A model generated the notes under the pieces. It worked only from the letters and a program-made list of their open reading frames with translations. It searched no databases and was not told the DNA's origin. The position numbers were made by a program, and so were the translations under genes. 12,819 bases of DNA from JAUWCW01 sp030609125 [NCBI: Candidatus Rokuibacteriota bacterium] (GTDB lineage Bacteria; JAUVQV01): the NCBI GenBank assembly GCA_030609125.1, contig JAUWCW010000022.1, forward strand, positions 1 to 12,819, in the 5' to 3' direction. Shown piece by piece: positions 625 to 12,819 of this stretch (positions are counted from its first letter, which is position 1; every line of letters begins with the position of its first letter).

Positions 625-3600
625 TCACTCCCCGGCGCCGCGCCGCCGGGGCTCCGCCGGCTCTCTCTCCGGGAAATGGTACTGCCGGTACAGCTCCAGA
701 GTGTCCTCCCCGTGGCACTCCTTGCAGAGGGAACCTCCTATGGAGAAGGTGCTGCGCTCCTTGAGAAAGCTGTTCTGCGAGTCGCCGTCAAGGGGGACCC
801 CCATCCCCGAGCGGGACGTGTCCGGCTCCCAGCGGTGCACGTCGTGGCAGGTGGCGCAGGAGATGTACCCGCGGTTTTTTTTCTCACCCTCGGCGTCATA
901 CAGGGCGAGGGACGAGGCGGACCCGAAGAGAGAGCTCTGCCTCCGGACGAAGGGACGGCTCACCATCCCCTTGCCGGGATAGGAGACGAGATGAGCTTCT
1001 ATCCGGGGGGGTACGGTGGCCTCGTCGATCCCCTCCTCCTCGTGACAGCCGCGGCAATATCTGCTCTGCGGGTCCTCTCCCGGCCCGGTTTCCCGGCTCC
1101 AGAGAAAGGGCAGATGCCGGGCGTTGTGGACGCTGTGGCAGGAGCCGCACACACCGCTCTCGTCCGCCGTGAGGCCGTCAAGATTCATGGTGTCCGGCGC
1201 CGTTACGCGAAGGTCGTGGTCGGTGCCGACTACCATTGAGCGCTGGGCGTGGCAGGGAAAGCAGAGCGGTGAGTAGCCGTCGGCCTCCATGCGGAGAAAG
1301 CTCGTCGCCGGGCCCCCTTCCACCGTGACCGTCCCGCCCCCCGCAGATGAGGGTGACCAGATGTGGGGGTTGTGGCAGGTCCCGCAGGAGACCTTTCCGC
1401 GGAAGTACTTCCGGCCCGAGGGCAGGTAGAGGGGCAGTTCCTTTCCCGGATTGGCCCCGGGACTCATCGCGAGCGGGTGATCGGCGCCTCCCTCTCCCCT
1501 TTCGTGACAGCGCAGGCAGATCTCGCTCCCGTAGGATTCTTCCTTCTCGAGAGGATACGGCCACATGAGCAGCTTCTGTCCTCCGTGGGCAAGGTGACAG
1601 ACTTCGCAGAGGCCCTCCCCGTCCCCCTTCGCGCTGAGGTCGTGCTTCGTTCCCGCTACGGGGCTTTCAGCGGAATGGCATTTCAGGCAGAGGGGAGAAC
1701 GGCCGGAGGAGGGACTGACGAGAAAGCTGGTGCTGTTGTCTCCGGGACTGAAGAAATCTCCCTTGTCGGCCGGGTTGAAGGGGTTCCAGACGTGGGTGTC
1801 GTGGCAGCCGTCGCAGTCGACCGCCCCCATCTCGGGGTTCTCGCCGACCACGTCGGGGACGGGGTGGGTCCGCTCGCTGACAACGTTGCCCTGGGCAAAG
1901 GAGCCGTCGCTGTGGCAGTCGGTACAGAAGGGGAATAGCCTGCCGGGCTCTCCGGGGCTGGGCTCGACCTCGCGCGCCCACGAGTCCCCGAGACCGCTGC
2001 TGTGGGCAAGATGGCACGCCCCGCAGGTCCCGGTACTGGAAGCGGTTTCGCCGAGGCGGTTTTTTTCCCCCGGGAAGTAGAGGGCCAGGTCGTGCTTCGT
2101 CCCCTTGACGGCCTCCTGCCTGCGGTGGCAGCCGAGACAAAGCTCGGCCCTCTTTTCCCCGGATTTGAGCCGGAGAGAGTACTCCACGGGGTCGCGGTGA
2201 ACGTCGTGGCAGGTGGCGCAGGTGAGAAGCCCCCGCTTCAGCCGCCGGCCGTCGTCCCAGAAGAGAGGAAGGTCGCGTCCGCCCGTCCCCCCCGAGGGTG
2301 TGACACCCAGGATGTGGCCGAAGTAACCTCTCATGGGAACCGACCCCTCCAGGCCGTGACAGTGCCAGCAGACCTTTTCGATCACGCTCCCCCCCATCCC
2401 CGTCTCCTCCAAAGGGATGTTCCACCCGTGGCTGCTGTGGCAGGACCCGCAGGTGTCGCGGCCGTGGGGAGTCGATGCCATTTCCTGCATGGCGGTGTGA
2501 CAAAGCGTGCAGGAATAGTTCTCCAACGGCAGCACGAGGCCTGTCCCCTCCGGCTCTCCTCCGTGGGCCCTGTGACAGGTGAGACAGACCACCTCTCCGT
2601 CGGGTCCCGTCGTTCCGCCGGCCTCGAGAAAGGCCGTGGACACCGACGCCTTCCCGGGTTTGACCGCAATCGGATGGGTGCCGAAGTCGGCGGTCTTCGG
2701 TGCCAGGGAGTTCTGCGCTCTGTGGCAGTACAGGCAGAGGGCCTGCCTGCTCACGACGAGCCCCGCCGTTTCCTTGAGGCTGCCGTGGGCCTTGTGACAG
2801 GAGAGGCACTGCACCGTGTCTTTCCCCCCCATGATTCCGCCGTAGCCGACGAGCTTGGTGAGCTTCGCCTTGTCCTGTTCTCCGACAGTGGCGCCCACGG
2901 GGTGGTTCCAGCTGTTGGATCCGTCGAAATGAGGCCCATGACAAGCACGGCAGAGGGTGTCGAGAGCGGAAGGAGACTCTGCCAGAAGGCTGCCCTTTTT
3001 CCCGAGGCCGGCGGCATTGTGGGCCCGATGGCAGGAAAGGCAGCCTACCCGTCCTTTCAAGAAGGGATGATTTCCTTCGCCTCCCGCGGCTGAAGAGTGG
3101 CTCTCGTGGCACTGGAGGCAGAGTGTACCGTCCGCAGTCGCCCCTTTCAACAGGTCCTCCCGCGGCGCCCGGTGCAGGGCGTGACATGTCGAGCACGACG
3201 GGCCGCTCCCGGCGACGGTGTGGCTGGCGCCTCCCGGCCCCGCACCTTCCGTGCTGGGGTTGTCACTGTGGCAGCCGGCGCAGAGCCTGCTGGCCGTGCT
3301 CTGGCGTATCAGGCCTCGGCCGGAAGCGCGGTGGATCCTGTGGCAGGAATCACACGTCGGCCGGCTCTTACCCCTGCCGGCCCCACCGCTTGACGGGGAG
3401 GGGTGGTTCCCCCCCTTCCTTCCTCCCCTGCCGGGATGGCACGTGAGGCAGTGGGCGGAGTAGCCCTTTCTGAATCGCATGAAGGTGGCAACGCCCTCGG
3501 TCTGCACGTGGGGATTGTGGCAGGTGCCGCAGGAGGCCCGCACCCCCGGGCCCGGCTCAGTGGAGCGGCCGTCGGCACGGTGCTGCAGCCCCGACCACGT

Positions 3601-3852
3601 GGAGCGGCGCGAGTCGCGGACCGGCCCGTTGTGGCAGCTGTAGCACATGTCCCGCTCGCCGGGAGCCGAGGCGTCGCGAAGTGAGAGGAAGTTGAAGAGG
3701 TCCGACTTCTCCTGCTCGATGCGTTCGAGGTGGCAGACTCCGCAGCGGCGAGGGAGGGTTGGACTTCCGGCGCCCTTCTCCTCTTCCGCCCCGAGTGGCC
3801 CTGCGAGCAGCAGGAAACCTGCCAGGAGGAACAGGGAGCAGAGACGGGGCAT
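625..3852 (-). CDS. 30-haem secreted c-type cytochrome (doubled-CXXCH type)
   Basis: A protein of 1075 aa with a Sec signal peptide (MPRLCSLFLLAGFLLL, likely cut near residue 22) and no later membrane segment, so it is exported to the periplasm or beyond. I count 30 CXXCH motifs, first Cys at 37, 70, 108, 135, 167, 191, 220, 245, 271, 301, 349, 373, 423, 448, 468, 495, 545, 572, 610, 643, 680, 722, 749, 779, 823, 864, 902, 933, 999 and 1043: about one haem per 36 residues. Many odd-numbered sites read CXXCHxxH, and recurring HP or GTKHDL-type histidines offer second axial ligands. The expected role is long-range electron transfer in extracellular respiration, as for other giant multihaem cytochromes of Geobacter relatives. 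The frame is open up to 4104, but the start at 3852 gives the signal peptide and overlaps the preceding stop (TAATG), implying coupled translation. It is the last gene of the operon. Confidence 0.93.
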   Translation of the reverse strand: MPRLCSLFLLAGFLLLAGPLGAEEEKGAGSPTLPRRCGVCHLERIEQEKSDLFNFLSLRDASAPGERDMCYSCHNGPVRDSRRSTWSGLQHRADGRSTEPGPGVRASCGTCHNPHVQTEGVATFMRFRKGYSAHCLTCHPGRGGRKGGNHPSPSSGGAGRGKSRPTCDSCHRIHRASGRGLIRQSTASRLCAGCHSDNPSTEGAGPGGASHTVAGSGPSCSTCHALHRAPREDLLKGATADGTLCLQCHESHSSAAGGEGNHPFLKGRVGCLSCHRAHNAAGLGKKGSLLAESPSALDTLCRACHGPHFDGSNSWNHPVGATVGEQDKAKLTKLVGYGGIMGGKDTVQCLSCHKAHGSLKETAGLVVSRQALCLYCHRAQNSLAPKTADFGTHPIAVKPGKASVSTAFLEAGGTTGPDGEVVCLTCHRAHGGEPEGTGLVLPLENYSCTLCHTAMQEMASTPHGRDTCGSCHSSHGWNIPLEETGMGGSVIEKVCWHCHGLEGSVPMRGYFGHILGVTPSGGTGGRDLPLFWDDGRRLKRGLLTCATCHDVHRDPVEYSLRLKSGEKRAELCLGCHRRQEAVKGTKHDLALYFPGEKNRLGETASSTGTCGACHLAHSSGLGDSWAREVEPSPGEPGRLFPFCTDCHSDGSFAQGNVVSERTHPVPDVVGENPEMGAVDCDGCHDTHVWNPFNPADKGDFFSPGDNSTSFLVSPSSGRSPLCLKCHSAESPVAGTKHDLSAKGDGEGLCEVCHLAHGGQKLLMWPYPLEKEESYGSEICLRCHERGEGGADHPLAMSPGANPGKELPLYLPSGRKYFRGKVSCGTCHNPHIWSPSSAGGGTVTVEGGPATSFLRMEADGYSPLCFPCHAQRSMVVGTDHDLRVTAPDTMNLDGLTADESGVCGSCHSVHNARHLPFLWSRETGPGEDPQSRYCRGCHEEEGIDEATVPPRIEAHLVSYPGKGMVSRPFVRRQSSLFGSASSLALYDAEGEKKNRGYISCATCHDVHRWEPDTSRSGMGVPLDGDSQNSFLKERSTFSIGGSLCKECHGEDTLELYRQYHFPEREPAEPRRRGAGE
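628..2220 (-). repeat. Tandem four-haem modules in the C-terminal half of the 30-haem cytochrome
   Basis: Protein-level repeat at residues 545-1075: units at 545-679, 680-822, 823-998 and a half unit at 999-1075. Each full unit runs CXXCHxxH, then CXXCH followed by a Gly-Thr-x-His-Asp-Leu stretch (GTKHDL, GTKHDL, GTDHDL), then a second CXXCHxxH (CGACHLAH, CEVCHLAH, CGSCHSVH), then a final CXXCH. SFL before the second haem recurs in units 2, 3 and 4. The last unit stops after two haems. Residues 108-544 instead show shorter two-haem pairs (CXXCHxxH plus CXXCH). Confidence 0.7.
630..651. other. GC-rich inverted repeat at the convergent 3' ends
   Basis: The arms CCCCGGCG (630-637) and CGCCGGGG (644-651) are perfect 8-bp complements around a 6-base loop. 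The hairpin sits just past the HAD stop codon and inside the last codons of the oppositely oriented 30-haem cytochrome gene. It could slow or protect transcripts from either side. No T-run follows on either strand, so it is not a standard intrinsic terminator. In this GC-rich coding sequence it may be fortuitous. Confidence 0.3.
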
Positions 3853-4055
3853 TACTCCATGGCGCGCTTGAAGATGTAGAACGCCCCCTTGACCTCTCCC
3901 TGACTGGTGGTGAAGGGGGACACTCCGACCAGCTGCCATCCCTCCTGGCCGGCCTTGTTGATGCGGGTCAGGTCCAGTCCCGACTTGGGCATGCCCCCGA
4001 ACATGTCGGGGTGAGGCACATAAACCTGTCCGTATTCCCAGCGTTTCTCCGCCAT
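3852..4055 (-). CDS. Small DUF4177-like protein
   Basis: A 67-aa protein without signal peptide or membrane helix, so probably cytosolic. The pattern WEYGQVYV near the N-terminus, then LTRINKAGQEGWQLVGV and GAFYIFKR at the end, matches the compact beta-alpha-beta layout of DUF4177-type proteins, whose function is unknown. ATG at 4055 is preceded by GGGAG with about 7 nt spacing. Its TAA shares a base with the ATG of the 30-haem cytochrome gene (TAATG), so the two are probably co-translated. The long cytochrome frame also covers this stretch, but the conserved small-domain pattern, ribosome site and coupling make this the real gene. Whether it acts in expression, assembly or regulation of the cytochrome cannot be told. 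Confidence 0.8.
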   Translation of the reverse strand: MAEKRWEYGQVYVPHPDMFGGMPKSGLDLTRINKAGQEGWQLVGVSPFTTSQGEVKGAFYIFKRAME

Positions 4056-4135: not shown

Positions 4136-5083
4136 TTAGTTTCGGCCCGGGATTTGAAGGGCCCGCACGCGGCCGGCTCCCATTTCCAGGACGAAAACCG
4201 TCGATCCCCTGACGGCGAGGCTGACGGGGTTGCTGAAGATAAGCGGCTTGTTGTCCGCCCCGCAAAGGGTGGATTGGTATCCCCCCTGCAAGTCGTAGAC
4301 CTGGATGACCCCGAGGTAGTTGTCCGCCACCAGCAGCAGGTTCTCGCCCCAGAGGCCCAGCCCCGCCGGCCGGTAGAGGGTGCCCTCGGTGACCCCGAAC
4401 TCGCCGAACTCAAGCAGCGGGTCGCCGGCGGGAGTGAAGATCTTTATCCTGCTGTTGAGGGAGTCGGAGACGATGATCCTTCCCAGGGGGTCCTGGAGGA
4501 GTCGGAAGGGGTAGCGGAACTTGCCGGGCCCGTCGCCGAGCTCTCCCCACTGAACTGATGGTGTTCCCTCAAGGTCGTAGACCTTGACGCTGTGCGCCTC
4601 GTTGTCGACAACGAAGCACTGGCCCCTGGCGACTTCAACTCCCACAGGCTCGGTGGGACTCTCCCCGCCGCCCGTCGGAAACTCTCTTATCCGCTCGCCT
4701 TTCTGGTTGATGACGACGATTTTTCCCGCTCCCGATGCGGCCAGGTAGAGATTGTCGTCGCCGCCCACGTCGAAGCCGAGATACGAAGCGGAGCTTCCTC
4801 CAGGCAGTTTGGTGGCGGAGAGGAACTTGCCCTCGAGCCCGTAGCTGATCACGCGGGCGTTGAGGTCATCGAGGACGAAGAGACGGTCTCCGTGAAGGGT
4901 GAGGTCTGCGGGCTGACGCAGGGGAACCGTCGCGGCGCTGCTGATGGTAAAGAGAGGAGCGGTCTTCAAACAGGCCGCTCCGCCGGGGCTTCCCGCCACG
5001 AGACAGAGGGCGACCGCCGCCGCCCCGGCCGCCGCTTGCCGCCGGAGCCTGCTTTCAAGTATGAGGGTCCTGAGAAGCACCAT
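4136..5083 (-). CDS. NHL-repeat beta-propeller protein, exported
   Basis: A 315-aa protein with an N-terminal hydrophobic export signal (about residues 18-31; mature part probably starts between 31 and 38). Six consecutive blade-like repeats follow, each with a hydrophobic strand, a VxD/VSD-type turn and an ending such as RVISYGLEGK, KIVVINQKGE, SVKVYDLEG, RIKIFTPAGD, VIQVYDLQGG or RVRALQIPG, as in NHL propellers. It has no CXXCH, so no c-type haem. NHL proteins often lie beside multihaem cytochrome genes in Geobacter relatives; a scaffold or assembly role outside the cytosol is inferred. Start choice: ATG at 5083 lies only 2 nt after GGGAG, whereas the next codon, GTG at 5080, has 5-nt spacing and may be the true start. 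The gene begins 9 nt after the tri-haem cytochrome stop. Confidence 0.85.
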   Translation of the reverse strand: MVLLRTLILESRLRRQAAAGAAAVALCLVAGSPGGAACLKTAPLFTISSAATVPLRQPADLTLHGDRLFVLDDLNARVISYGLEGKFLSATKLPGGSSASYLGFDVGGDDNLYLAASGAGKIVVINQKGERIREFPTGGGESPTEPVGVEVARGQCFVVDNEAHSVKVYDLEGTPSVQWGELGDGPGKFRYPFRLLQDPLGRIIVSDSLNSRIKIFTPAGDPLLEFGEFGVTEGTLYRPAGLGLWGENLLLVADNYLGVIQVYDLQGGYQSTLCGADNKPLIFSNPVSLAVRGSTVFVLEMGAGRVRALQIPGRN

Positions 5084-5092
5084 CTCTCCCGG

Positions 5093-5749
5093 CTACTGCT
5101 TCTGGGGGAAATACCACTTGGCCCCTCGGGAGAGGATGAAGAAGTCGGGGAGTTTCTCCAGTGAGGCCTCCGCCTTCGACGAGAGTCCCGGCCTCGCGTA
5201 GCGGGCCATCTTCCCCTTCCCGTGGCACTGCGTGCATCCCGGACCGCGGTCGAAGCACTTCTGTCTGTCGATGACCCGGTCTCTCAGGGCCGCCAGGTCC
5301 CTTGTGCTCCCGTCCAGCGGGGCGTCGAGCTTCAGAAAGAGCTTCTTCGCCGCGGTCCCTTCCGCCTCGCCCTCTTTCAGGGGTCGCGGCGGACGGTCCC
5401 AGACCAGGTCGGGCTGTTCACCCGACGCCCCAGCCCAGTGACAGACGAGACACTCGAGAAAGCCGGCGTGCTGGTTGAAGAAGGCCGGCTTTACGCCTTC
5501 TCCGGGATGGGGCGGCAGGGAGTGGCACTTGCCGCAGAAGGAGGCGGACTCGGGATGCTCCGGCGGCCCCGTCGGCAGATGGAGGGTGGCGCCTGCCATC
5601 ATGGTCCGCCTCTGCTCCAGGAGCCGGCTCTTCATCTCCGTCCAGTCGGAGGCGTCGTGACGCGGCCACGCGACGAAAACGGCCAGCGCCGCGAGGGCCG
5701 TGAAGAGCGCCGCCGCCGCCGGGGACCCCTTCCGCGAGGACCCGCTCAC
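5093..5749 (-). CDS. Membrane-anchored tri-haem c-type cytochrome
   Basis: A 218-aa protein starting at GTG 5749, which overlaps the TGA of the preceding gene as GTGA, with GAGGAG 5 nt upstream. The frame runs open far upstream, but that part is antisense-like and rich in Arg/Gly. Residues 10-28 form one membrane helix with the basic SSRK stretch before it, so the rest should face the periplasm. Three CXXCH motifs are present, first Cys at 72 (CGKCH), 100 (CLVCH) and 172 (CTQCH), with further histidines at 57, 65, 81 and 94 that could ligate haem iron. An extra Cys at 165 lies close to the third site. Placed directly after the cytochrome b gene, it is a good candidate to receive electrons from it. 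I do not recognise a named family. Confidence 0.85.
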   Translation of the reverse strand: MSGSSRKGSPAAAALFTALAALAVFVAWPRHDASDWTEMKSRLLEQRRTMMAGATLHLPTGPPEHPESASFCGKCHSLPPHPGEGVKPAFFNQHAGFLECLVCHWAGASGEQPDLVWDRPPRPLKEGEAEGTAAKKLFLKLDAPLDGSTRDLAALRDRVIDRQKCFDRGPGCTQCHGKGKMARYARPGLSSKAEASLEKLPDFFILSRGAKWYFPQKQ

Positions 5750-6738
5750 AGCTCCTCCTCCTCCTCGATCTCCGCGGTGCTCTCCCGGGCCCTGCGCGCC
5801 AGGGGATGAAAGGGGTCGTCCTTCACGAACTGCCGGAAGTTCTCCATCGCCATGGCCCGCTCTCCCATCTTCCTGAGGACGACGGCCATGTTGTACCGCG
5901 CCTGCGAGTAGCCGGGGTAGCGCTCCAGCGCCCGGCGGTAGTGGAAGAGCGCATCGACGTATTTTTCCTCCTTCGCCAGCAGGTTCCCCGCCTTGAGTTC
6001 TTCCTCGACGGTCTCTTTCTCGAGACTTTGCTCGTTCTCTTCTGCCTCCTCGGCTGTCTTCTTGCCGATGCTCGCGAGGCGCTCTTGCTCCTGGATCTGA
6101 AAGGCGCGGTGGTGCCCGGCCACCTTGGCCGCCGCCAGCTCCTCCGACATGGATCCTGTGATCCAGGTCCACTGGGGCACGAACCGCCCCTCCCAGGTCA
6201 GGACGCCGTAGAGGTGCCAGAGTGCGACCGCCAGGAGCAGGAGGGAGAGTCCGCGGTGCAGGTGGGCAAGAAGTCCCACGGCGGGCAGGAGGCTGTAGGA
6301 ACCGAAATACTCCCAGAGCCCGACGCCGATTCCCGTCAGGGACAGTCCCGTCAGAAGAAGGCCCGTGCCCCAGTAGAGGGCCTTCTGGGAGGGGCGGAAG
6401 AGATCGGCCTCGGGCCGTTCGTCTTCGCCGCCGAGGAGGTAGCCGGCCTGTCGTCGCAGGTCCGTCCAGTCTCCCTTTTTCCAGCCCAGGGGGAAGGTGG
6501 ACCAGTTGCGCCCCTCAATGTACCCTCGCACGAAGAGGTAGGTCGCATGGTAGCCGATGAGCGTGAGGGCCGCCATGCCCGACCACTGGTGAACCCGGTA
6601 CCAGAGGTCAAGATCCATGCCCGCCGGCACCGGGGAGCCGGCGATGACGTACCCGGTGCCCAGTGCTCCCAGCGCGGCGAGGATCAGGGCCCCGTGCTGC
6701 AGCCGCAGGTGCAGGCTCATTCTGGGAATAGTTTTCAC
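5746..6738 (-). CDS. Cytochrome b561-like four-helix membrane protein fused to TPR repeats
   Basis: A 330-aa protein starting at GTG 6738 (GGGAGGT 8 nt upstream), 6 nt after the previous stop. Four membrane segments lie at about residues 15-33, 50-70, 120-142 and 153-180. Candidate haem b ligands are His15, His50, His64, His159/161 and His175 within or near these helices, the layout of formate dehydrogenase/hydrogenase-type b561 subunits. The charged 71-118 loop points to the cytosol, giving both termini inside. After a Glu-rich, coiled-coil-like stretch (about 197-250), residues 245-312 carry two TPR-like units (LLAKEEKYVDALFHYRRALE, then YNMAVVLRKMGERAMAMENF). The likely role is menaquinol oxidation in the inner membrane, passing electrons to the flanking anchored cytochromes. 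The cytosolic TPR tail is unusual for such a subunit and suggests a protein partner. Confidence 0.87.
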   Translation of the reverse strand: MKTIPRMSLHLRLQHGALILAALGALGTGYVIAGSPVPAGMDLDLWYRVHQWSGMAALTLIGYHATYLFVRGYIEGRNWSTFPLGWKKGDWTDLRRQAGYLLGGEDERPEADLFRPSQKALYWGTGLLLTGLSLTGIGVGLWEYFGSYSLLPAVGLLAHLHRGLSLLLLAVALWHLYGVLTWEGRFVPQWTWITGSMSEELAAAKVAGHHRAFQIQEQERLASIGKKTAEEAEENEQSLEKETVEEELKAGNLLAKEEKYVDALFHYRRALERYPGYSQARYNMAVVLRKMGERAMAMENFRQFVKDDPFHPLARRARESTAEIEEEEEL

Positions 6739-6744
6739 AGCCGT

Positions 6745-7590
6745 TTACCTCCCTCTCAGCAGGCCGACGAGAGCCCGCAACGCGAGACCGAGCAGCAGCA
6801 TCCAGTAGAGAACGGAAAAGGACCATCCCGCCAGGCCGAGCCTCCAGCCGGGAAGAACGAGAGGATTCATGCCCGCCCCCCGGAGACTCCCCTCCGAAGC
6901 GCCGTCGTGGCAGCGTCCCGCCGGGCCGGAGGGGATGGCGCCGGAGGTGCATGTGCCGGCCAGCTGCCCGGGGTTGACCGACGACTCCTCGTTGTCGGGG
7001 GCAAGGATGCGGTGCGCCGTGTGGCAGTCGGGACAGGAGGGAGCGCGCCTGTTTCCCCGGGAGAGGGCGAGGTAGTGCACGTCCCGGAAATAGGTTCGAA
7101 CGTGATCCGCTTCGGTGTGGCAGGCGGCGCACTGGCGGACCTCCCCGGCAAGGTCCCGCCGGGTGATCTCCTTCAGCGACGAGGCGGGGTGACAGACCAT
7201 GCAGGAGATCTTCTCCGCCTTCGTCTCCCCGTGCACGCTGGTCGTGTAGGTCCAGAAGAGAGACTCGTGTGAGTAGGGATTGCCCCTCTGGTCGCGCTGG
7301 TGGCAAACCTGCCCGCAGCTGATCTCCTTCGAGGCGTCCTGGTGGGGAATGGCGGAGATGTCCGAGTGGCACTCGCGGCAGTTGAGCAGAGAGTGCACTG
7401 AGGATTCGAAAAAGGAGGCGGAAACGCCGAGCTGCCTCGCCTCGCCCCCCTTCTGGGCGAAAAATCCCTCCAGCCCGTGGCAGCGGTAGCAGTCCTCATC
7501 GTCGGCGCCGTGACAGACGACGGGCATCAAGAAGAGCAGCAGCCCGGCCGTCAGGAAACGGAGCCCCGCCTTTAGTCCGCTATTCAACAT
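6745..7590 (-). CDS. Multihaem c-type cytochrome with C-terminal membrane anchor
   Basis: A 281-aa protein with a signal peptide (hydrophobic 9-25, likely cut near 29) and one C-terminal membrane helix at about 255-277 followed by a basic end, so the haem domain lies in the periplasm against the inner membrane. Five CXXCH motifs have first Cys at 34, 71, 130, 154 and 186. Two non-standard candidates are CGQVCH (Cys92, CX3CH) and a CX12CH from Cys214 to His228. Recurring S-V-H or D-V-H stretches before the motifs (SSVHSLLN, TSVHGETK, RDVHYLAL) could give distal ligands. ATG 7590 overlaps the tonB-like gene by 11 nt and has GAGGT close upstream. With the cytochrome b gene just downstream it fits a quinol-oxidising membrane complex; haem number is 5 certain, up to 7. 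Confidence 0.88.
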   Translation of the reverse strand: MLNSGLKAGLRFLTAGLLLFLMPVVCHGADDEDCYRCHGLEGFFAQKGGEARQLGVSASFFESSVHSLLNCRECHSDISAIPHQDASKEISCGQVCHQRDQRGNPYSHESLFWTYTTSVHGETKAEKISCMVCHPASSLKEITRRDLAGEVRQCAACHTEADHVRTYFRDVHYLALSRGNRRAPSCPDCHTAHRILAPDNEESSVNPGQLAGTCTSGAIPSGPAGRCHDGASEGSLRGAGMNPLVLPGWRLGLAGWSFSVLYWMLLLGLALRALVGLLRGR

Positions 7591-8764
7591 AGAACCTCAC
7601 GTCCACGTGCACCTCGGCCCTGACCCTGTCGAACGACCACCCGCCGATGGCCTTCTCGACAGCATCGATCAGCTTGCTGAACCCCTGTCTCTCTTCCTGC
7701 CTGGGACGCTTGACGTGAACCCCGGTGATGTTCCCGCCGTCATCCACGTCGACCACAAGGTAGACCCTGCACCAGCCCTGCTGAAAATTGCTCTTCGTGA
7801 AGATTAGCCCAGGATAGGTTATGTAGTCAAAATTCTCCTCGATGGCGGTAGGCGGGTAGCTTTTGACGACCATCTGGACACGGCGATCCAGGCTCTTTAC
7901 ATCCGGCTCGATATGCCTCTCCTCCGCTTTTCCCCCCTGCCCCGGTCGGTAGATGCCGACGAAGGCGAGACGACCGCCCTTTTTCAGGTCCTTTGTCTGC
8001 GGTGGTGGAGTCAGGTAGCCTGGCACGTCGTGAAAGACGATCGTGTACGGGCCGAAGGGCAGGTCTTCAAAGAAGGCCCGCCCCGGCTGTGTCATTCCGA
8101 GAGGGATCCCGTCGGGACGGCGGATCTCGAAGGAGGCCCCCGGAACGTCGTTGATGATAACCTCCACCTCGACGCTGCGGGTGTACTTGCCGACGAAGAC
8201 GATCTTGCTCTCTGCCTCCAGCGTTTTGGTGCTGATGGGGGGGGTTTTGTGTCCCGGCACGGGATGGAAGGTCGCGGTGTAGTCCCCCGTGGGCACGTCT
8301 TTCCGCGTCCAGAAGGTGCCGAAGCCGTAATACTCCGTGGGGCCGGAGACCGTGAAGGTGGCGGCGGACAGATCGGTGACAACGCTCAAGACCGTCTCGC
8401 CTGCGGCCTCTTCTTCTTCGGGCGGTGGGATTTCTCCCAGGACGTCTTCGATACCGCCGGACTCCTCATCGGAGACAACAGTCTCTTCCCCTATCGTCTC
8501 GGGGCCTTTTTCAAGGACTTTTGCATCGGGCGGGGGTAGCTTCCTTGAAGGTGCCGGCCGCGGATCCCCGGATATATCCGAGACCGTCTGGAAAAGCCGA
8601 ACGACCATGAGCTTCTCCCTCTCCTTTTCCTCCTCCGCCCACTGGTAGATCTGGATTCCTCCGATGAAGACGAAGATGTGGATGAAGACGGAGGCCCCGA
8701 TGGCTATGACAGTCGCCAGCCGCTCCCGGCGCGTTTTCTGGGTTTCGGGATTGATTTCTACCAT
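7580..8764 (-). CDS. TonB-like energy transducer with two tandem beta domains
   Basis: A 394-aa protein with a single N-terminal membrane helix (about 17-38, containing an SxxxH-like SVFIHIF pattern as in TonB) and a cytosolic basic N-terminus. A short Pro-rich part (RPAPSRKLPPP) and a Glu-rich segment (89-123) follow. Residues 125-195 and 199-273 form two similar domains, each ending with a Tyr-Thr stretch, a VPG turn, TPP and an I/AFVG strand. The C-terminal domain (about 290-394) begins with SYPPTA and has GWCRVYLVVDVDDGGNITGV and the IGGWSF signature of TonB C-terminal domains. TonB spans the periplasm and passes ExbB/ExbD-derived energy to outer membrane receptors. It is larger than the usual 240 aa or so because of the inserted repeats. 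No strong ribosome site precedes ATG 8764; it starts 28 nt after exbD and may be coupled to it. Confidence 0.85.
   Translation of the reverse strand: MVEINPETQKTRRERLATVIAIGASVFIHIFVFIGGIQIYQWAEEEKEREKLMVVRLFQTVSDISGDPRPAPSRKLPPPDAKVLEKGPETIGEETVVSDEESGGIEDVLGEIPPPEEEEAAGETVLSVVTDLSAATFTVSGPTEYYGFGTFWTRKDVPTGDYTATFHPVPGHKTPPISTKTLEAESKIVFVGKYTRSVEVEVIINDVPGASFEIRRPDGIPLGMTQPGRAFFEDLPFGPYTIVFHDVPGYLTPPPQTKDLKKGGRLAFVGIYRPGQGGKAEERHIEPDVKSLDRRVQMVVKSYPPTAIEENFDYITYPGLIFTKSNFQQGWCRVYLVVDVDDGGNITGVHVKRPRQEERQGFSKLIDAVEKAIGGWSFDRVRAEVHVDVRFYVE
7946..8392 (-). repeat. Two-unit protein repeat inside the TonB-like protein
   Basis: Residues 125-195 (8180-8392) and 199-273 (7946-8170) align by eye. 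Unit 1 has DVPTGDYTATFHPVPGHKTPP and unit 2 has LPFGPYTIVFHDVPGYLTPP at the same place, followed by KTLEAESKIVFVGKYT and KDLKKGGRLAFVGIYR. The pattern resembles PEGA or other small surface beta domains, but I cannot assign the family with certainty. Confidence 0.7.
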
Positions 8765-8792
8765 TGCGGGCGGGGCATGAGAGGACTCGCTG

Positions 8793-9200
8793 TCAGGGCT
8801 TTTCTTCTTCCGTGGGCAGGGCGATATTCGTGATCCCCGCCTGGAGCAGCTCGTCGAGCACGTCGATGACGATCCGGTACCTGACCCCTTGGTCGCTCTT
8901 GACGAGGACGAAGCTCTCCGGGCTGCCTGCGATCTTCTCCAGGGTGCCCTGGCCGAGAGCCCCCAGTTCCACCGCCTCTCCGTCGAGGTAAAGTTTCTCT
9001 TCCTTGTCGATGGAGATGATCACGTTTTCCTGGGAAATGTCCTGCTGCACCGTGGACTGGGGCAGGCGCATCTCTATGCCCTTTTCGACGTTGAAGACCG
9101 TTCCGACCATGAAGAAGATGATAAGCAGGAAGGTGATGTCCGCCATGGAAGCGGTGGGGATGATCTCCGCCTCGTCTTCGAAGCTGCGCTTAAATTTCAA
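8793..9200 (-). CDS. exbD: ExbD/TolR-family proton-channel subunit
   Basis: A 135-aa protein of normal family length. A short cytosolic N-terminus (FKRSFEDEAEIIPTASM) leads into one membrane helix at about 21-38 that carries the conserved Asp21 (MADITFLLIIFFMV), the proton-carrying residue of ExbD/TolR. A periplasmic domain follows, with VIISIDKEEKLYLDGEAV and the ending VLDELLQAGITNIALPTEE. It start at TTG 9200: there is an in-frame TGA six codons upstream and no ATG or GTG between, and a G-rich ribosome site lies before it. It overlaps exbB by 11 nt. With ExbB it forms the motor that uses proton-motive force to drive the TonB-like protein encoded next. Confidence 0.93.
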   Translation of the reverse strand: MKFKRSFEDEAEIIPTASMADITFLLIIFFMVGTVFNVEKGIEMRLPQSTVQQDISQENVIISIDKEEKLYLDGEAVELGALGQGTLEKIAGSPESFVLVKSDQGVRYRIVIDVLDELLQAGITNIALPTEEEKP

Positions 9201-9855
9201 GGTATTCCCCCCCGATCATGTCTCGCTGAGCAGTGCGCCTGGCGAGTTTCTCTTCCAGATCGGTGAGGCCGTCCAGGAACTTGATGGAGCTTTCCTGCAT
9301 TTCCAGAACAAAGCGGTTGATCCAGTGTATGAAGATGTACTGGGCGAAGACGGTGGGAATGGCCACGCCGAGGCCCCCCGCGGTGGTGATGAGGGACTGG
9401 GAGATGCCGCCCGCCACCACCTGCGGGTCGCCGAGCCCGCTGGCCGCTATGGACTCGAAGGCCTTGACCATGCCGATGACGGTCCCGAAAAAGCCGATGA
9501 GCGGCGACAGTTTGCCGATTGTCCCCAGGACGATGAGGTTGCGCTCCATCTTGGCCACTTCCACCGAGCCCGACCCTTCGATGGCCTTTTCGATCTCCTC
9601 CCTGCTGCGCTGGTGTTTCTTGAGGGCTTCCCGGAAGACGGAACCGAGCGGGCCCTGGTACTCCTCGCAGATCGCGGCGGCCTCCTCGATCTGGTTGCCG
9701 CTCAGCGCCTCGTTGATCTTCGTCATGAATTCCTTGGTGTCCATGCGGGCGCGGCGAAGGAACCAGAAGCGCTCGGCTATGATGGCCAGGGACATAATGG
9801 AGAGAACCGCCAGCGGATACATGACGGGCCCGCCCCTGATGAAAAGTTCTAGCAT
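9190..9855 (-). CDS. exbB: ExbB/TolQ/MotA-family proton-channel subunit
   Basis: A 221-aa inner membrane protein with three membrane segments (about 12-33, 108-130 and 150-178) and the family signature in the second and third: GTIGKLSPLIGFFGTVIGM, then the GGISQSLITTAGGLGVAIPT helix with conserved small residues and hydroxyls lining the channel. The cytosolic part between helices 1 and 2 is alpha-helical, as in ExbB. ATG 9855 has AAGGAG with 6-nt spacing and lies 58 nt after the 13-haem cytochrome. The adjacent exbD and TonB-like genes favour ExbB over TolQ, since no tolA, tolB or pal is present. It builds the pentameric ring around ExbD. Confidence 0.93.
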   Translation of the reverse strand: MLELFIRGGPVMYPLAVLSIMSLAIIAERFWFLRRARMDTKEFMTKINEALSGNQIEEAAAICEEYQGPLGSVFREALKKHQRSREEIEKAIEGSGSVEVAKMERNLIVLGTIGKLSPLIGFFGTVIGMVKAFESIAASGLGDPQVVAGGISQSLITTAGGLGVAIPTVFAQYIFIHWINRFVLEMQESSIKFLDGLTDLEEKLARRTAQRDMIGGEYLEI

Positions 9856-9913: not shown

Positions 9914-11305
9914 TCAGTGCCTCCCGTGGCAGGGCGAGCAGATCTCGTTGTAGGTCGCCAGGCGGAGGCGGTTCTCCTCGTCCGCCCCGATCCCGGCGGG
10001 CCCTCTCAGCACACCCCGTTCGTGGGGGTTGTGGCAGGTGACGCAGGTTATGGTGTTGTTTGCTTCGAGAGGGAGGATGACGAGCCGCTCCCCCTCGTAG
10101 TCGCGCAGGGTCCTGAGCATCTCTTCGGGGATCTCACGGAGGTGCTCTCCGCTCGGGTGGGGACCGAGGGGATGACAGGAGAAACAGAGTGACTTCGGGT
10201 CGTCCGTGAAGTCGTTCGGTCCCAGCTCGAACCCCTCTTCGGGCAGGGTCACGTGACAGTAGAGACACTGTTTCTTCCTGAGGTTCCCCGCATCGTCTAT
10301 CTGATCGTGCGGGTTGAGATTGACCACGGAGCGGCCCTCGTGGCAGCGGACGCAAAAGTCTTCCACTGCGTTGTAGGGACCTCCCCTGAGAAAGCGGGGA
10401 TTGTCCTTTGTTACCGTGTTGTCGCACTCGTACGGGTCGTGGCAGGTGACACAGGTGATCTTCTCGTTTTCCAGGGGAAAATCGGAAAAGTCCATCTTCC
10501 AGGATCCCGGGCTGGACACCACCCCGAGGGGATGGTGAACCGCTTCTTCGTGGCAGCGCTGGCACATGGCGTCGGCGTCGCCTTCCTTGCGAAAGCTGAC
10601 GGGGACGCCTGGCTGGGGAGTGTCCCGGTGGCAGGAGAGACAGAAGATCTTGCCGCCGTGAGGGTTGATGCCGCGGCCCTCGATGAGAAGAAGAGAGTAC
10701 TCTTCCCGGAGGGAAGGATAGAGAAGGGTCGAGCCGTGCGCCTGGTGGCAGCTGAGGCAGGTCACGCTCTTGCGGGGCTGGTTGCCTCTCGGATAATGCG
10801 TCGCGTCAACGCCGTCATGACACTTTCGGCAGAAGGGACTCACGCCCCCGGAGCCGAAAGGGAAGGGCTCGGCCAGCTTGCCCCGCGTCGAGCCCGGGTC
10901 GGTGGCGTGGCACCTGGTGCACTCCAGGCTGTCGTGGGAGTTGGTGAAACCCTCCTCGTCGCCGTCTCCGGCGGAGGGGGCGAGGGAACTCGCCGCGGGG
11001 ATGTGTACCACCGCTCCACCCTCTGTTCCTTCGGGGAGAATCACGATCCAGAAGTTCTTCTTCCCCTCCTTGTGACAAGTCAGGCAGGAATGGGCCACGA
11101 CGGCGTGCGGCCCTTCCTGCTCGGGGGTGAAGATGCGCGTGCCCGCGCCGCCGTCTTCCACGGGGCTCTTGTGACAGTGCAGGCAGCCTTCGCGAAGGTG
11201 GGGATTGAGGATTCTCTCGCCGGCGCGCACCGGGACTGAAGTTGCGCCGCACCACGCCGCCAGCAGAACCGCAAGCAGAAGTGATTTGTAGGTCCTTGGA
11301 ATCAT
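9914..11305 (-). CDS. 13-haem secreted c-type cytochrome
   Basis: A 463-aa protein with a Sec signal peptide (hydrophobic 8-20, likely cut after VRA at 28) and no other membrane segment. Thirteen CXXCH motifs have first Cys at 41, 74, 129, 159, 183, 222, 248, 285, 318, 347, 374, 421 and 456; the last ends three residues before the C-terminus. Three read CXXCHxxH or similar (CLSCHQAH, CVTCHDPY, CVTCHNPH), and NPH and HP stretches recur as likely second ligands. The wide haem spacing (about one per 36 aa) resembles the 30-haem protein, though the sequences differ. It is probably a periplasmic or outer-membrane-associated electron carrier. ATG 11305 starts 5 nt after the previous stop; the frame stays open to 11770, but that part shadows the small upstream gene. 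Confidence 0.92.
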   Translation of the reverse strand: MIPRTYKSLLLAVLLAAWCGATSVPVRAGERILNPHLREGCLHCHKSPVEDGGAGTRIFTPEQEGPHAVVAHSCLTCHKEGKKNFWIVILPEGTEGGAVVHIPAASSLAPSAGDGDEEGFTNSHDSLECTRCHATDPGSTRGKLAEPFPFGSGGVSPFCRKCHDGVDATHYPRGNQPRKSVTCLSCHQAHGSTLLYPSLREEYSLLLIEGRGINPHGGKIFCLSCHRDTPQPGVPVSFRKEGDADAMCQRCHEEAVHHPLGVVSSPGSWKMDFSDFPLENEKITCVTCHDPYECDNTVTKDNPRFLRGGPYNAVEDFCVRCHEGRSVVNLNPHDQIDDAGNLRKKQCLYCHVTLPEEGFELGPNDFTDDPKSLCFSCHPLGPHPSGEHLREIPEEMLRTLRDYEGERLVILPLEANNTITCVTCHNPHERGVLRGPAGIGADEENRLRLATYNEICSPCHGRH

Positions 11306-11310
11306 GACTT

Positions 11311-11715
11311 CTATTCCTCTTCCCTGACAGCCCTTACCGCCGAGCGTATCACAAAGATCCGCTTGTTGTTGCTGCGGGGGTCGGCGGGAAAGAGATAGAA
11401 GCCGTTGCCGAGGAGCCCGGCGCCTATCGACGTGCCCCGCAGGGCCTCGCCGTCCCTGAAGGTTACGACCATGCGCTTGCCGATCTTGTCTTTTGGAAGC
11501 TGCAGCTTGCGCTCGCTGTAGTTCCGGTCCCCCTCCAGGGAATGGACGAAAAAGACGGCTTTCAACTCCTCCAGGCGCACCTCGACAAGGCGGGAAGATG
11601 CCCCGGGGTGACTCTCCTCGATGGTGAAGGTCTCCCTGAGGGGCTTGAAGTCGGAAGTGCTTCCCCTGACGGTCCGCCCCGACCGGTAGCGGGCTACCAC
11701 TTGCTGAGTTGCCAA
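11311..11715 (-). CDS. Small conserved protein with two similar halves, DUF6982-like (first gene of the operon)
   Basis: A 134-aa protein without signal peptide or membrane helix, so cytosolic. The N-terminal half has VVARYRSGRTVRGSTSDFKP and a LKAVFFVHSLEG strand; the second half repeats the scheme with MVVTFRDGEALRGTS, GFYLFP and RIFVIRSAVRAV. This looks like two small Sm-like beta units, as in DUF6982-type proteins common in deltaproteobacterial genomes (family name from memory). The start is TTG 11715: the codon directly upstream is an in-frame TAA, and GGAG lies 7 nt before it, so no longer version is possible. It leads the operon, 5 nt before the 13-haem cytochrome. Its role is unknown; a regulatory or assembly function is only a guess. 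Confidence 0.78.
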   Translation of the reverse strand: MATQQVVARYRSGRTVRGSTSDFKPLRETFTIEESHPGASSRLVEVRLEELKAVFFVHSLEGDRNYSERKLQLPKDKIGKRMVVTFRDGEALRGTSIGAGLLGNGFYLFPADPRSNNKRIFVIRSAVRAVREEE

Positions 11716-11837: not shown

Positions 11838-12173
11838 ATGAAAGCCTATCGCATCAGGGATTTCTTCGATCCTAAATTCAACGAGTACATCGTGGGCCCG
11901 AAACAGACCGGGAGCCGTGGGACGTACCTTGCTTACGGCGAGGTCGACCCGGGGGCGAGCAGGCGGCTCTCTCCCGGGAAGGGGCACGAGGAGATCCTGA
12001 CGGTCCTCTCCGGAAGCGCTCTGCTGAAAAGCGCCTCAGGCGAACTGGCCCTTGTCGAGGGGGACGCGGTCTACCTGGACCAGGACTTCGAAGGGGAACT
12101 TGAGGCCGGGGTGGACCGGGCGGTGCGCTACCTCTCTTCCGGAGGGCACGTCCCGGGCGGTCATGACCACTGA
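11838..12173 (+). CDS. Small cupin-domain protein
   Basis: A 111-aa cytosolic protein with ATG 11838 preceded by GGGAGGGCAGG. The single beta-barrel shows the cupin scheme: VDPGASRRLSPGKGHEEILTVLSG (first motif, with His50 and Glu52 as possible metal ligands), then SGELALVEGDAVYLDQD (second motif). The canonical pair of histidines in motif 1 is reduced to one. The C-terminus is His-rich (GGHVPGGHDH), which could bind metal. The substrate or metal is not evident; small single-domain cupins range from enzymes to ligand sensors. It is transcribed away from the cytochrome operon and followed by 296 nt without an established gene. Confidence 0.82.
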   Translation: MKAYRIRDFFDPKFNEYIVGPKQTGSRGTYLAYGEVDPGASRRLSPGKGHEEILTVLSGSALLKSASGELALVEGDAVYLDQDFEGELEAGVDRAVRYLSSGGHVPGGHDH

Positions 12174-12469: not shown

Positions 12470-12819
12470 ATGTTTTCCAGTGTGCATAGAATTGCGGGTT
12501 GTGTGTTCCTGGTGCTGCTCTGCGTCTCCTGTGCGGGTCCTCCTGAAGTCGGCATAACCGAAGACACGCTTTACGAGGAGGCGGTTTACGACTACTTCAA
12601 GCACGACTACGAGCTCGGTCCGGGGGACGTTCTGGAAATCGTCTACCACTACACGCCCAAGCCGGAAACCAGGGTCTACCTCATAGCCGTCGGGGACGTG
12701 ATGAGGGTGGAATTCACCTACCATCCCGGGATGAACAGAGAGCTGACGGTTCGACCCGACGGCAACATCACCGTTCCCCGCAAAGGACAGGTGGAGGTTA
12801 TAGGGCTGACGGCCCTGGA
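12470..12819 (+). CDS. Wza-like polysaccharide export lipoprotein (3' end outside the window)
   Basis: ATG 12470 has GGAGG about 6 nt upstream, and 116 codons are visible before the window ends. The N-terminus is a lipoprotein-type signal (hydrophobic 8-20, Cys21 in VSCAG; the -3 position is Cys, so the lipobox is imperfect). YELGPGDVLEIVY then marks the start of the polysaccharide export domain, and LTVRPDGNITVPRKGQVEV with GLTA is the typical continuation seen in Wza and related outer membrane exporters. A second GDV motif (VGDVMRVEF) follows the first by about 28 residues, a partial duplication of the domain start. It should form the outer membrane exit pore for capsule or exopolysaccharide; matching synthesis genes are expected downstream. 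Confidence 0.88.
   Translation, partial: MFSSVHRIAGCVFLVLLCVSCAGPPEVGITEDTLYEEAVYDYFKHDYELGPGDVLEIVYHYTPKPETRVYLIAVGDVMRVEFTYHPGMNRELTVRPDGNITVPRKGQVEVIGLTAL

What the first reader, a model, noticed from the sequence alone, without database searches (positions are those of the whole stretch)
7580..9855. A complete ExbB-ExbD-TonB motor embedded between multihaem cytochrome genes
Seen: exbB, exbD and a tonB-like gene lie in the middle of an 11-gene same-strand run, overlapping or abutting neighbours that encode a 13-haem and a membrane-anchored multihaem cytochrome. Known: TonB systems normally accompany TonB-dependent receptors and nutrient uptake, and none is encoded in the window. Inference: proton-motive force may be used at the outer membrane for electron export, for example to gate a conduit, to load or release the large cytochromes, or to recover a soluble shuttle or metal. 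A plainer alternative is that the motor serves iron uptake needed to make about 51 haems.
Basis: partly seen in the sequence, partly recalled or inferred. Interest (0 to 1): 0.78.

Follow-up and report, generated by a model that had tools for sequence, protein, structure and literature searches.

The report
TonB motor inside electron-export operon
A little-known bacterium has built a proton-powered pulling motor, of the kind bacteria normally use to import scarce nutrients, into the middle of a gene set that looks made for pushing electrons out of the cell, and the core of this arrangement recurs in two other genomes, one of them from a different phylum.

Summary
In detail: exbB, exbD and a tonB-like gene (7580-9855, minus strand) sit in an 11-gene run with 51 CxxCH motifs. 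The TonB label needed proof, because Pfam and NCBIfam do not recognise it. A profile-profile comparison does (96% probability), and the transmembrane S-x3-H and the proton-path residues D25/T148/T181 are kept.

MHC1-exbB-exbD-tonB recurs in G001 (same order). The whole order MHC1-exbB-exbD-tonB-MHC2-cytochrome b-MHC3-NHL-MHC4 recurs in G310, of another phylum. Six further genomes carry the cytochrome module without a motor, so the motor is an optional part of a conserved module. Motor-linked ExbB and MHC1 each form a well-supported group. Cytochrome b carries a TPR tail where the motor is present (2 of 2) and not elsewhere (0 of 6). The genome has another TonB, next to an iron/cobalamin/haem-type ABC ATPase, and a TonB receptor, which weakens the plain iron-uptake reading.

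Best reading: a dedicated, divergent Ton motor serving an outer-membrane step of this pathway. The step is unknown; export or assembly of the large cytochromes is my first guess. Evidence is comparative only, from three genomes.

The parts
9914..11305 (-). MHC1, 13-haem cytochrome, probably periplasmic or secreted; partner gene of the motor cassette
   Evidence: 13 CxxCH, start ATG 11305; 55% identical to its G001 counterpart, which is cut at its N-terminus; groups with the G001 and G310 copies 100/99
9190..9855 (-). exbB, proton-channel subunit of the motor
   Evidence: PF01618 E 1.5e-30; T125 and T158 align with E. coli ExbB T148 and T181, Q153 with E176; 51-53% identical to the G001 and G310 copies
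8793..9200 (-). exbD, TTG start, overlaps exbB by 11 nt
   Evidence: PF02472 E 5.7e-28; D21 aligns with E. coli ExbD D25
7580..8764 (-). divergent TonB: N-terminal TM with S25-x3-H29, linker, two Ig/CnaB-like domains (about 121-270), TonB-like C-terminal domain (about 290-394)
6745..7590 (-). MHC2, membrane-anchored multihaem cytochrome (5 CxxCH + 1 CX3CH), overlaps tonB by 11 nt
   Evidence: fused to the cytochrome b in G310
5746..6738 (-). cytochrome b561-type subunit with C-terminal TPR tail
   Evidence: PF01292 E 2e-12 and TPR models; tail seen in the two motor-bearing modules only
5093..5749 (-). MHC3, 3-haem, N-terminally anchored
4136..5083 (-). NHL-repeat beta-propeller, probably secreted
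   Evidence: PF01436, hydrophobic N-terminus; conserved in the module
3852..4055 (-). 67-aa DUF4177 protein
   Evidence: PF13783 E 2.6e-6; no counterpart found in the other modules by phmmer
625..3852 (-). MHC4, 30-haem cytochrome
   Evidence: 30 CxxCH; conserved in the module
11311..11715 (-). DUF6982 protein, first gene of the run
   Evidence: PF22478 E 3e-24; no counterpart found in G310's stretch by phmmer

Best explanation
A dedicated Ton-type motor is an optional part of a conserved electron-export module. SHOWN by sequence: ExbB and ExbD homologues with the proton-path residues, a divergent TonB with the transmembrane S-x3-H and a TonB-like C-terminal domain, and a fixed gene order with a cytochrome b/multihaem module in two phyla. 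INFERRED: MHC2 + cytochrome b + MHC3 oxidise the quinol pool and pass electrons through MHC1 and MHC4 towards the outside. ExbB/ExbD turn proton-motive force into movement of TonB, whose C-terminal domain pulls on an outer-membrane partner that is encoded elsewhere and serves this pathway. The step I think most likely is translocation or assembly of the large secreted cytochromes and the NHL protein; opening an outer-membrane conduit is second. The TPR tail on cytochrome b may dock the oxidase to the motor.
For: Same order MHC1-exbB-exbD-tonB in G001, and MHC1-exbB-exbD-tonB-MHC2/cytochrome b/TPR-MHC3-NHL-MHC4 in G310 of another phylum. tonB overlaps the cytochrome gene MHC2 by 11 nt in both the window and G310, which suggests conserved translational coupling. 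Motor-linked ExbBs form one group among 33 rows (99/97) and motor-linked MHC1s among 17 rows (100/99). The TonB C-terminal domain is 46% identical between the two phyla and matches a 16-sequence TonB profile at 96% probability, E 4.4e-9. TPR tail on cytochrome b: present in 2 of 2 motor modules that can be read, not found in the corresponding gene of 6 of 6 motor-less ones. A nutrient-type TonB and a receptor lie elsewhere in the genome. Precedents: Ton-dependent protein secretion, PopC/Oar (PMC6434023, passages); CbcL, a fused diheme-b plus multihaem inner-membrane cytochrome (PMC9129911, passages).
Against: Only three genomes carry the motor, and in one of them the contig ends inside tonB. 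Six genomes have the module without a motor (no exbB, exbD or tonB match at E <= 0.1 in the stretches searched; for the rest of G266's stretch at E <= 1e-3), so the motor is not needed for the module as such. No outer-membrane partner is recognised in the run. The window's ExbB has Gln where 29 of the 32 rows with a residue have Glu (E176 position), so this copy's activity is not certain. TPR and motor could be linked by shared descent only. The trees of neighbouring genes do not tell one story: NHL of window and G310 do not group, and G001's ExbB joins G310's rather than the window's. No expression, localisation or mutant data. The module's role in electron export is inferred from families.
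Confidence: 0.5

Rival explanations
1. Plain metal or haem uptake: the motor energises an ordinary TonB-dependent receptor and is co-regulated with cytochromes because about 52 haems need iron.
For: ExbBD-TonB systems normally do this; the genome has one TonB-dependent receptor, at C6, whose best NCBIfam match is the siderophore-receptor subfamily, below its cut-off.
Against: That receptor is not in the operon. A separate canonical TonB sits beside an iron/cobalamin/haem-type ABC ATPase. The cassette stays with a specific cytochrome (MHC1) in two phyla and in fixed order, and its TonB domain is outside the range of the Pfam/NCBIfam TonB models. 28 of 28 high-scoring ExbB loci from outside the phylum (those given loci) show no frame with two or more CxxCH in flanks of up to about 1.5 kb.
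Confidence: 0.17
2. Mediator or shuttle import: the motor drives uptake of a soluble redox shuttle or metal complex that is reduced by the periplasmic cytochromes.
For: In Pseudomonas putida, deleting the TonB complex cut mediator reduction rate and current by more than 50% (PMC12319065, abstract).
Against: No receptor recognised in the operon; a 30-haem and a 13-haem cytochrome suggest direct rather than shuttled transfer (inference).
Confidence: 0.13
3. Tol-like envelope scaffold: the motor holds the outer membrane close to the inner membrane at the cytochrome complex, shortening the electron path, without moving cargo.
For: ExbB scores higher against TolQ than ExbB, in NCBIfam (111 v 68 bits, both under cut-off) and against solved structures (63 v 45 bits); ExbD scores higher against TolR than ExbD in NCBIfam (59 v 44 bits, under cut-off). 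Ig-like domains in the TonB linker could be spacers.
Against: The TolQ preference is not special: the genome's C128 ExbB and the G001 and G310 copies show it too. ExbD matches ExbD structures better than TolR ones. The genome has its own Tol-like cluster at C129. Many of the high-scoring ExbB loci hold a TonB-type gene.
Confidence: 0.12
4. Genetic accident: motor genes landed in a cytochrome operon and have no joint function.
For: Rare in the sample: TonB domain found in 2 of 386 genomes searched; six genomes have the module without it.
Against: Same order, a conserved tonB/MHC2 overlap, and grouping of ExbB and MHC1 across two phyla.
Confidence: 0.06

Closest known systems
ExbB-ExbD-TonB (Ton) system
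   Same: ExbB and ExbD families, D25/T148/T181 equivalents, TonB-like TM with S-x3-H, C-terminal domain matching TonB by profile comparison
   Different: TonB domain not recognised by Pfam/NCBIfam; no receptor nearby; fixed inside a multihaem operon; Ig-like domains in the linker in the window's order; Gln at the E176 position in this copy
Ton-Oar system secreting PopC in Myxococcus xanthus (PMC6434023, passages)
   Same: A Ton motor used for export rather than import, as proposed here
   Different: Has a TonB-dependent transporter (Oar) in its cluster; no cytochromes described there in the passages read
CbcL / CbcBA inner-membrane cytochromes of Geobacter (CbcL from PMC9129911, passages; CbcBA only named in PMC12133095, passages)
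   Same: b-type membrane part plus periplasmic multihaem part; fused in CbcL and in G310
   Different: Different haem numbers; sequence relationship not tested; no motor known in those systems (recalled)
19-gene multihaem cluster of Deferribacter (PMC13186404, passages)
   Same: Many multihaem cytochromes with a b561-type gene in one cluster
   Different: Homology to this module not tested; in the passages read, TonB appears in iron-uptake context, not in that cluster
Tol-Pal (TolQRA)
   Same: Same motor superfamily; ExbB scores slightly TolQ-like
   Different: No Pal or TolB recognised in the run; the genome has a separate Tol-like cluster

Membership tests
ExbB/TolQ (PF01618) | Family profile over curated cut-off | tested here: met
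   106 bits v 22.9
ExbD/TolR (PF02472) | Family profile over curated cut-off | tested here: met
   98 bits v 25.4
ExbB or TolQ, ExbD or TolR equivalogs (NCBIfam) | Equivalog model over curated cut-off | tested here: not met
   Best: TolQ 111 of 221 bits, TolR 59 of 127 bits; ExbB and ExbD models lower
ExbBD proton channel | ExbD D25, ExbB T148 and T181 (named in PMC12965293, passages) | tested here: met
   D21, T125, T158 align with these positions
ExbBD proton channel | Conserved Glu at the E176 position of ExbB (importance recalled) | tested here: not met
   Q153 (codon CAG) in the window; Glu in 29 of the 32 rows with a residue, G001 and G310 included
TonB | N-terminal TM with S-x3-H | tested here: met
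   S25/H29 in window, S27/H31 in G001, S24/H28 in G310; the SHLS name is from PMC12965293 on TolA
TonB | C-terminal domain by Pfam PF03544 / NCBIfam TIGR01352 | tested here: not met
   No match
TonB | C-terminal domain by sensitive comparison | tested here: met
   hhalign 96%, E 4.4e-9; 12.5 bits in register as a single test, no shuffle of 20,000 reported at or above it; but E only 0.06-0.17 among 3,353 proteins
TonB | C-terminal fold | tested here: inconclusive
   beta-beta-alpha-beta model at pLDDT 45; 9 of the top 10 PDB hits are TonB or TonB-homologue (FusB) domains, but E 0.5-3.3
TonB | Binds a TonB box of an outer-membrane receptor | not testable with these tools
   Needs biochemistry
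Nutrient-uptake Ton operon | Receptor, binding protein or ABC importer nearby | tested here: not met
   None recognised among the 11 genes
Tol-Pal | TolB and Pal beside TolQRA | tested here: not met
   None recognised in the run; a Tol-like cluster lies at C129
CbcL-type quinol oxidase | b-type membrane domain joined to a periplasmic multihaem domain | tested here: met
   Adjacent genes in the window, fused in G310
CbcL-type quinol oxidase | Sequence homology to CbcL | not tested
   No CbcL sequence was fetched

The most novel reading that the evidence does not exclude
Electron export in these bacteria contains a proton-motive-force-driven mechanical step at the outer membrane: the quinol oxidase docks a dedicated Ton motor through the TPR tail of its cytochrome b, and the motor's specialised TonB domain exports or seats the large cytochromes, or opens their conduit, so that respiration and construction or opening of the outer circuit are coupled in one complex.
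Probability: 0.18. Interest if true: 0.9.

Novelty: new variant of a known kind. Interest (0 to 1): 0.7.

Why it matters
Extracellular electron transfer is usually pictured as passive hopping across the envelope. A motor kept with the cytochrome genes in two phyla would mean that some lineages spend proton-motive force on getting the outer circuit built or opened. How very large cytochromes cross the outer membrane is poorly understood in many lineages (recalled), and this gives a concrete gene set with which to test a Ton-driven route. The motor-less modules in other genomes provide natural controls.

Tried and rejected
Both genome-contig scans gave no loci (MHC1 profile; ExbB profile). I draw no conclusion from them, since ExbB is common and the patterns chosen were narrow; they also left all organisms unnamed. 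The TonB domain against PDB sequences: nothing and a chance-like hit to IFT81. MHC1 and MHC4 against PDB sequences: nothing at the thresholds used. Whole-protein AlphaFold model: only the helix and Ig-like domains were confident; its PDB hits are mostly Ig/CnaB-type surface proteins. PEGA repeats (my first guess for the middle) had no Pfam support. I first read the conserved ExbB ending IGGEYLEI as a protein motif; it overlaps the G-rich stretch before, and the TTG start of, exbD in all three genomes, so I dropped it. I first thought MHC3 missing in G310; it is there in another frame, with 3 CxxCH. The motor was sought in the phyla of two motor-less modules: 0 of 9 (E <= 1e-70) and 0 of 4 (E <= 1e-60). 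In the NHL tree the window and G310 copies do not group (window with G159, 97/97), and the MHC4 grouping of window, G001 and G310 is weak with long branches (83/88), so I do not claim transfer of the whole operon. In the ExbB tree G001 joins G310 rather than the window (99/88), against taxonomy; unexplained.
Full report
WHAT IS THERE. The window is a whole contig (G000:C107) of a fragmented 2.3 Mb genome in 376 contigs. Eleven genes run on the minus strand from 11715 to 625: DUF6982, a 13-haem cytochrome (MHC1), exbB, exbD, a tonB-like gene, an anchored cytochrome with 5 CxxCH and one CX3CH (MHC2), a b561-type cytochrome with a TPR tail, a 3-haem anchored cytochrome (MHC3), an NHL protein, a 67-aa DUF4177 protein and a 30-haem cytochrome (MHC4). 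exbB/exbD and tonB/MHC2 each overlap by 11 nt. A consensus scan shows no minus-strand terminator-like site.

IS IT A TONB? Pfam and NCBIfam give no TonB match for the 394-aa protein, and PF03544 finds other TonBs in this genome but not this one. Four results support the label. (a) A profile grown from four TonB-type seeds in hand to 44 hits (overlapping loci repeat some proteins) places the window protein next after the last of those hits, in register, but only at E 0.06-0.17 among 3,353 proteins, and at E 40 before iteration. As a single test it scores 12.5 bits; of 20,000 shuffles none was reported at or above that (15,331 sequences, the real one included, were reported; best shuffle 10.2). 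(b) Its tail is 46% identical to that of the corresponding G310 protein, and that two-row profile matches a 16-row TonB profile at 96% probability, E 4.4e-9. (c) A single-sequence AlphaFold model of the tail (pLDDT 45, low) has beta-beta-alpha-beta order, and 9 of the top 10 PDB hits are TonB or TonB-homologue (FusB) domains, though at E 0.5-3.3. (d) The transmembrane segment keeps S-x3-H in all three genomes. The middle of the protein is modelled as two Ig/CnaB-like domains. The region is shared with G001 (46% identity; G001's copy is cut by the contig end before the TonB domain) and absent from G310.

IS THE MOTOR LIKELY TO WORK? ExbD D21, ExbB T125 and T158 align with E. coli D25, T148 and T181, named as shared proton-transport residues in PMC12965293 (passages). 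But Q153 stands at the E176 position, where 29 of the 32 rows with a residue have Glu, G001 and G310 included. That this Glu matters is recalled, not looked up: the two papers listed do not hold the term E176. It could be a real change or a base error; I cannot tell.

CONSERVATION. In G001 (same order, other family) MHC1-exbB-exbD-tonB lie in the same order on a 3.3 kb contig, and the end of an MHC4 lies on another contig; the rest of its operon was not found or sought further. In G310, of another phylum, all of MHC1 (12 CxxCH)-exbB-exbD-tonB-[MHC2+cytochrome b+TPR fused]-MHC3-NHL-MHC4 (30 CxxCH) lie in order; only DUF6982 and DUF4177 are not seen. The tonB/MHC2 overlap is 11 nt there too. ExbB is 53% identical between window and G310, as high as within the window's order (51%). 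The three ExbBs form one group of 33 rows (99/97) and the three MHC1s one group of 17 rows (100/99; that tree warns of long branches, G310's MHC1 among them).

THE MODULE WITHOUT THE MOTOR. Searching 290 genomes with MHC1 gave matches at E <= 1e-30 in 8, the window's own included; searching 386 with MHC4 gave matches at E <= 1e-80 in 10, own included. I fetched 13 stretches after the first and 8 after the second, not every match, and one more while checking. MHC2-cytochrome b-MHC3-NHL-MHC4 in order is seen in six genomes without a motor: G087, G227, G266, G112, G159 and G171. In G266 the third gene has 3 CxxCH but does not match the window's MHC3; in G171 MHC2 is followed by one 641-aa gene with 3 CxxCH, which I take for a fused b-type + MHC3 although the b561 Pfam profile does not match it. 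No exbB, exbD or tonB match was found in the stretches of G087, G227 (two), G171, G112, G159, G356 (two) and the first 2.7 kb of G266's contig at E <= 0.1, nor in the main G266 stretch at E <= 1e-3. An MHC1-type gene is directly upstream of MHC2 in G087, G227, G171 and, weakly (37 bits), G159; in G266 MHC1-type genes lie on the other strand beyond MHC4 and in G112 none was seen. G356 has partial or rearranged modules. So the motor cassette looks like an optional insert between MHC1 and MHC2.

RARITY. The TonB-domain profile finds 2 of 386 genomes (G000 and G310; G001's copy is cut off) at E <= 1e-4, and 1 of 3 in G310's own phylum. ExbB of this type: 0 of 9 in the phylum of G266 (E <= 1e-70), 0 of 4 in that of G087 (E <= 1e-60); the tool warns that an empty answer without a known positive shows nothing. 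The 386 genomes span 327 genera and nearly all lie outside the window's phylum, so large phyla were probably sampled thinly and rarity in nature is not settled. Of 28 high-scoring ExbB loci from outside the phylum (those given loci), 0 have a frame with two or more CxxCH in flanks of up to about 1.5 kb; of 20 of them extended to at most about 8 kb each side, 1 has a frame with three or more (L075, 21 CxxCH).

A CORRELATED PART. The cytochrome b of the window and of G310 carries a long tail (159-160 residues after the last hydrophobic segment) with TPR repeats. None of the six motor-less modules has a TPR match in the corresponding gene at E <= 0.01; 43-96 residues follow the last hydrophobic segment in five of them, and G171's is the 641-aa gene. 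In b561-type subunits the C-terminus is expected on the cytoplasmic side (recalled), where ExbB also has its bulk (recalled). The tail may dock oxidase and motor together. Shared descent of the two motor-bearing operons is an equally good reason with n = 2.

OTHER MOTORS IN THIS GENOME. Four PF01618 places exist: the window, C128 (exbB-exbD after a long protein that looks like TPR repeats, not tested), C129 (with exbD-type and TonB_C-type genes, Tol-like) and C287 (weak). A canonical TonB at C169 follows the end of an ABC ATPase whose best matches are corrinoid, ferric-hydroxamate and haem transporters, under the curated cut-offs; it is a fragment at a contig end. One TonB-dependent receptor is at C6. 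So uptake seems to have its own TonB, which weakens but does not remove the iron-uptake reading; the contig breaks may hide more.

TOL OR TON? By NCBIfam both subunits score higher against TolQ/TolR than ExbB/ExbD, all under cut-off, and ExbB also matches TolQ structures better, while ExbD matches ExbD structures better. The genome's C128 ExbB and the G001 and G310 copies show the same TolQ preference, and many of the high-scoring ExbB loci hold a TonB-type gene, so I read this as not decisive.

LITERATURE. Searches in the held open-access library for multihaem cytochromes with exbB/exbD/TonB terms listed no paper whose title or abstract start describes such an operon; most listed papers were seen as listings only. 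I read passages of PMC13186404, PMC3543383 and PMC5317091 and searched the main text of two recent papers on electron-transfer cytochromes, PMC12133095 and PMC12977616, which do not hold the terms TonB or ExbB. Subscription papers and preprints were not searched. Relevant precedents: Ton-dependent secretion of PopC (PMC6434023, passages); loss of mediator reduction in a P. putida TonB-complex deletion (PMC12319065, abstract); CbcL as a fused diheme-b and multihaem inner-membrane cytochrome (PMC9129911, passages).

VERDICT. A divergent Ton motor has been adopted by a conserved cytochrome b/multihaem module in two phyla. That it serves an outer-membrane step of this pathway is my best reading (0.5); the particular step is open. 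It is a new variant of a known kind, with interest resting on a testable link between proton-motive force and the outer part of electron export.

Noticed in passing
9397-9399 (exbB codon 153, minus strand): Gln (CAG) stands where most ExbBs compared have Glu (E. coli E176 position, 29 of 32 rows with a residue); G001 and G310 have Glu.
   Followed up: partly
7955-8404 (tonB-like middle): Two Ig/CnaB-like domains in the periplasmic linker of TonB, present in the window and G001, absent in G310.
   Followed up: partly
9190-9216: The conserved ExbB C-terminus IGGEYLEI overlaps the G-rich stretch before, and the TTG start of, exbD in all three genomes, so its conservation may reflect translation signals.
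   Followed up: yes
L135 1-4042: In G310, directly upstream of the motor operon, an 11-CxxCH cytochrome, a second NHL protein and a thioredoxin/AhpC-type protein.
   Followed up: no
L041 646-6798 and L043 11217-17749: In two motor-less genomes the module has beside it, in the same order, a PPIC-type isomerase, cytochromes with 25 and 16 CxxCH and a beta-propeller (PQQ or lactonase type).
   Followed up: no
L133, L139: In G356 and G227 a second, larger MHC4 relative (2,148 aa at a contig end and 2,526 aa; 35 and 37 CxxCH) follows a cytochrome that matches both MHC2 and MHC3.
   Followed up: no
12470-12817: Start of a polysaccharide-export (PF02563) gene on the plus strand, cut by the contig end.
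   Followed up: no
11838-12173: A small cupin-like protein (below Pfam cut-offs) on the plus strand, divergent from the operon.
   Followed up: no
L012 3522-7671 (G000:C128): Another exbB-exbD pair follows a 1,013-aa protein that looks like TPR repeats; no TonB-type gene was recognised beside it.
   Followed up: no
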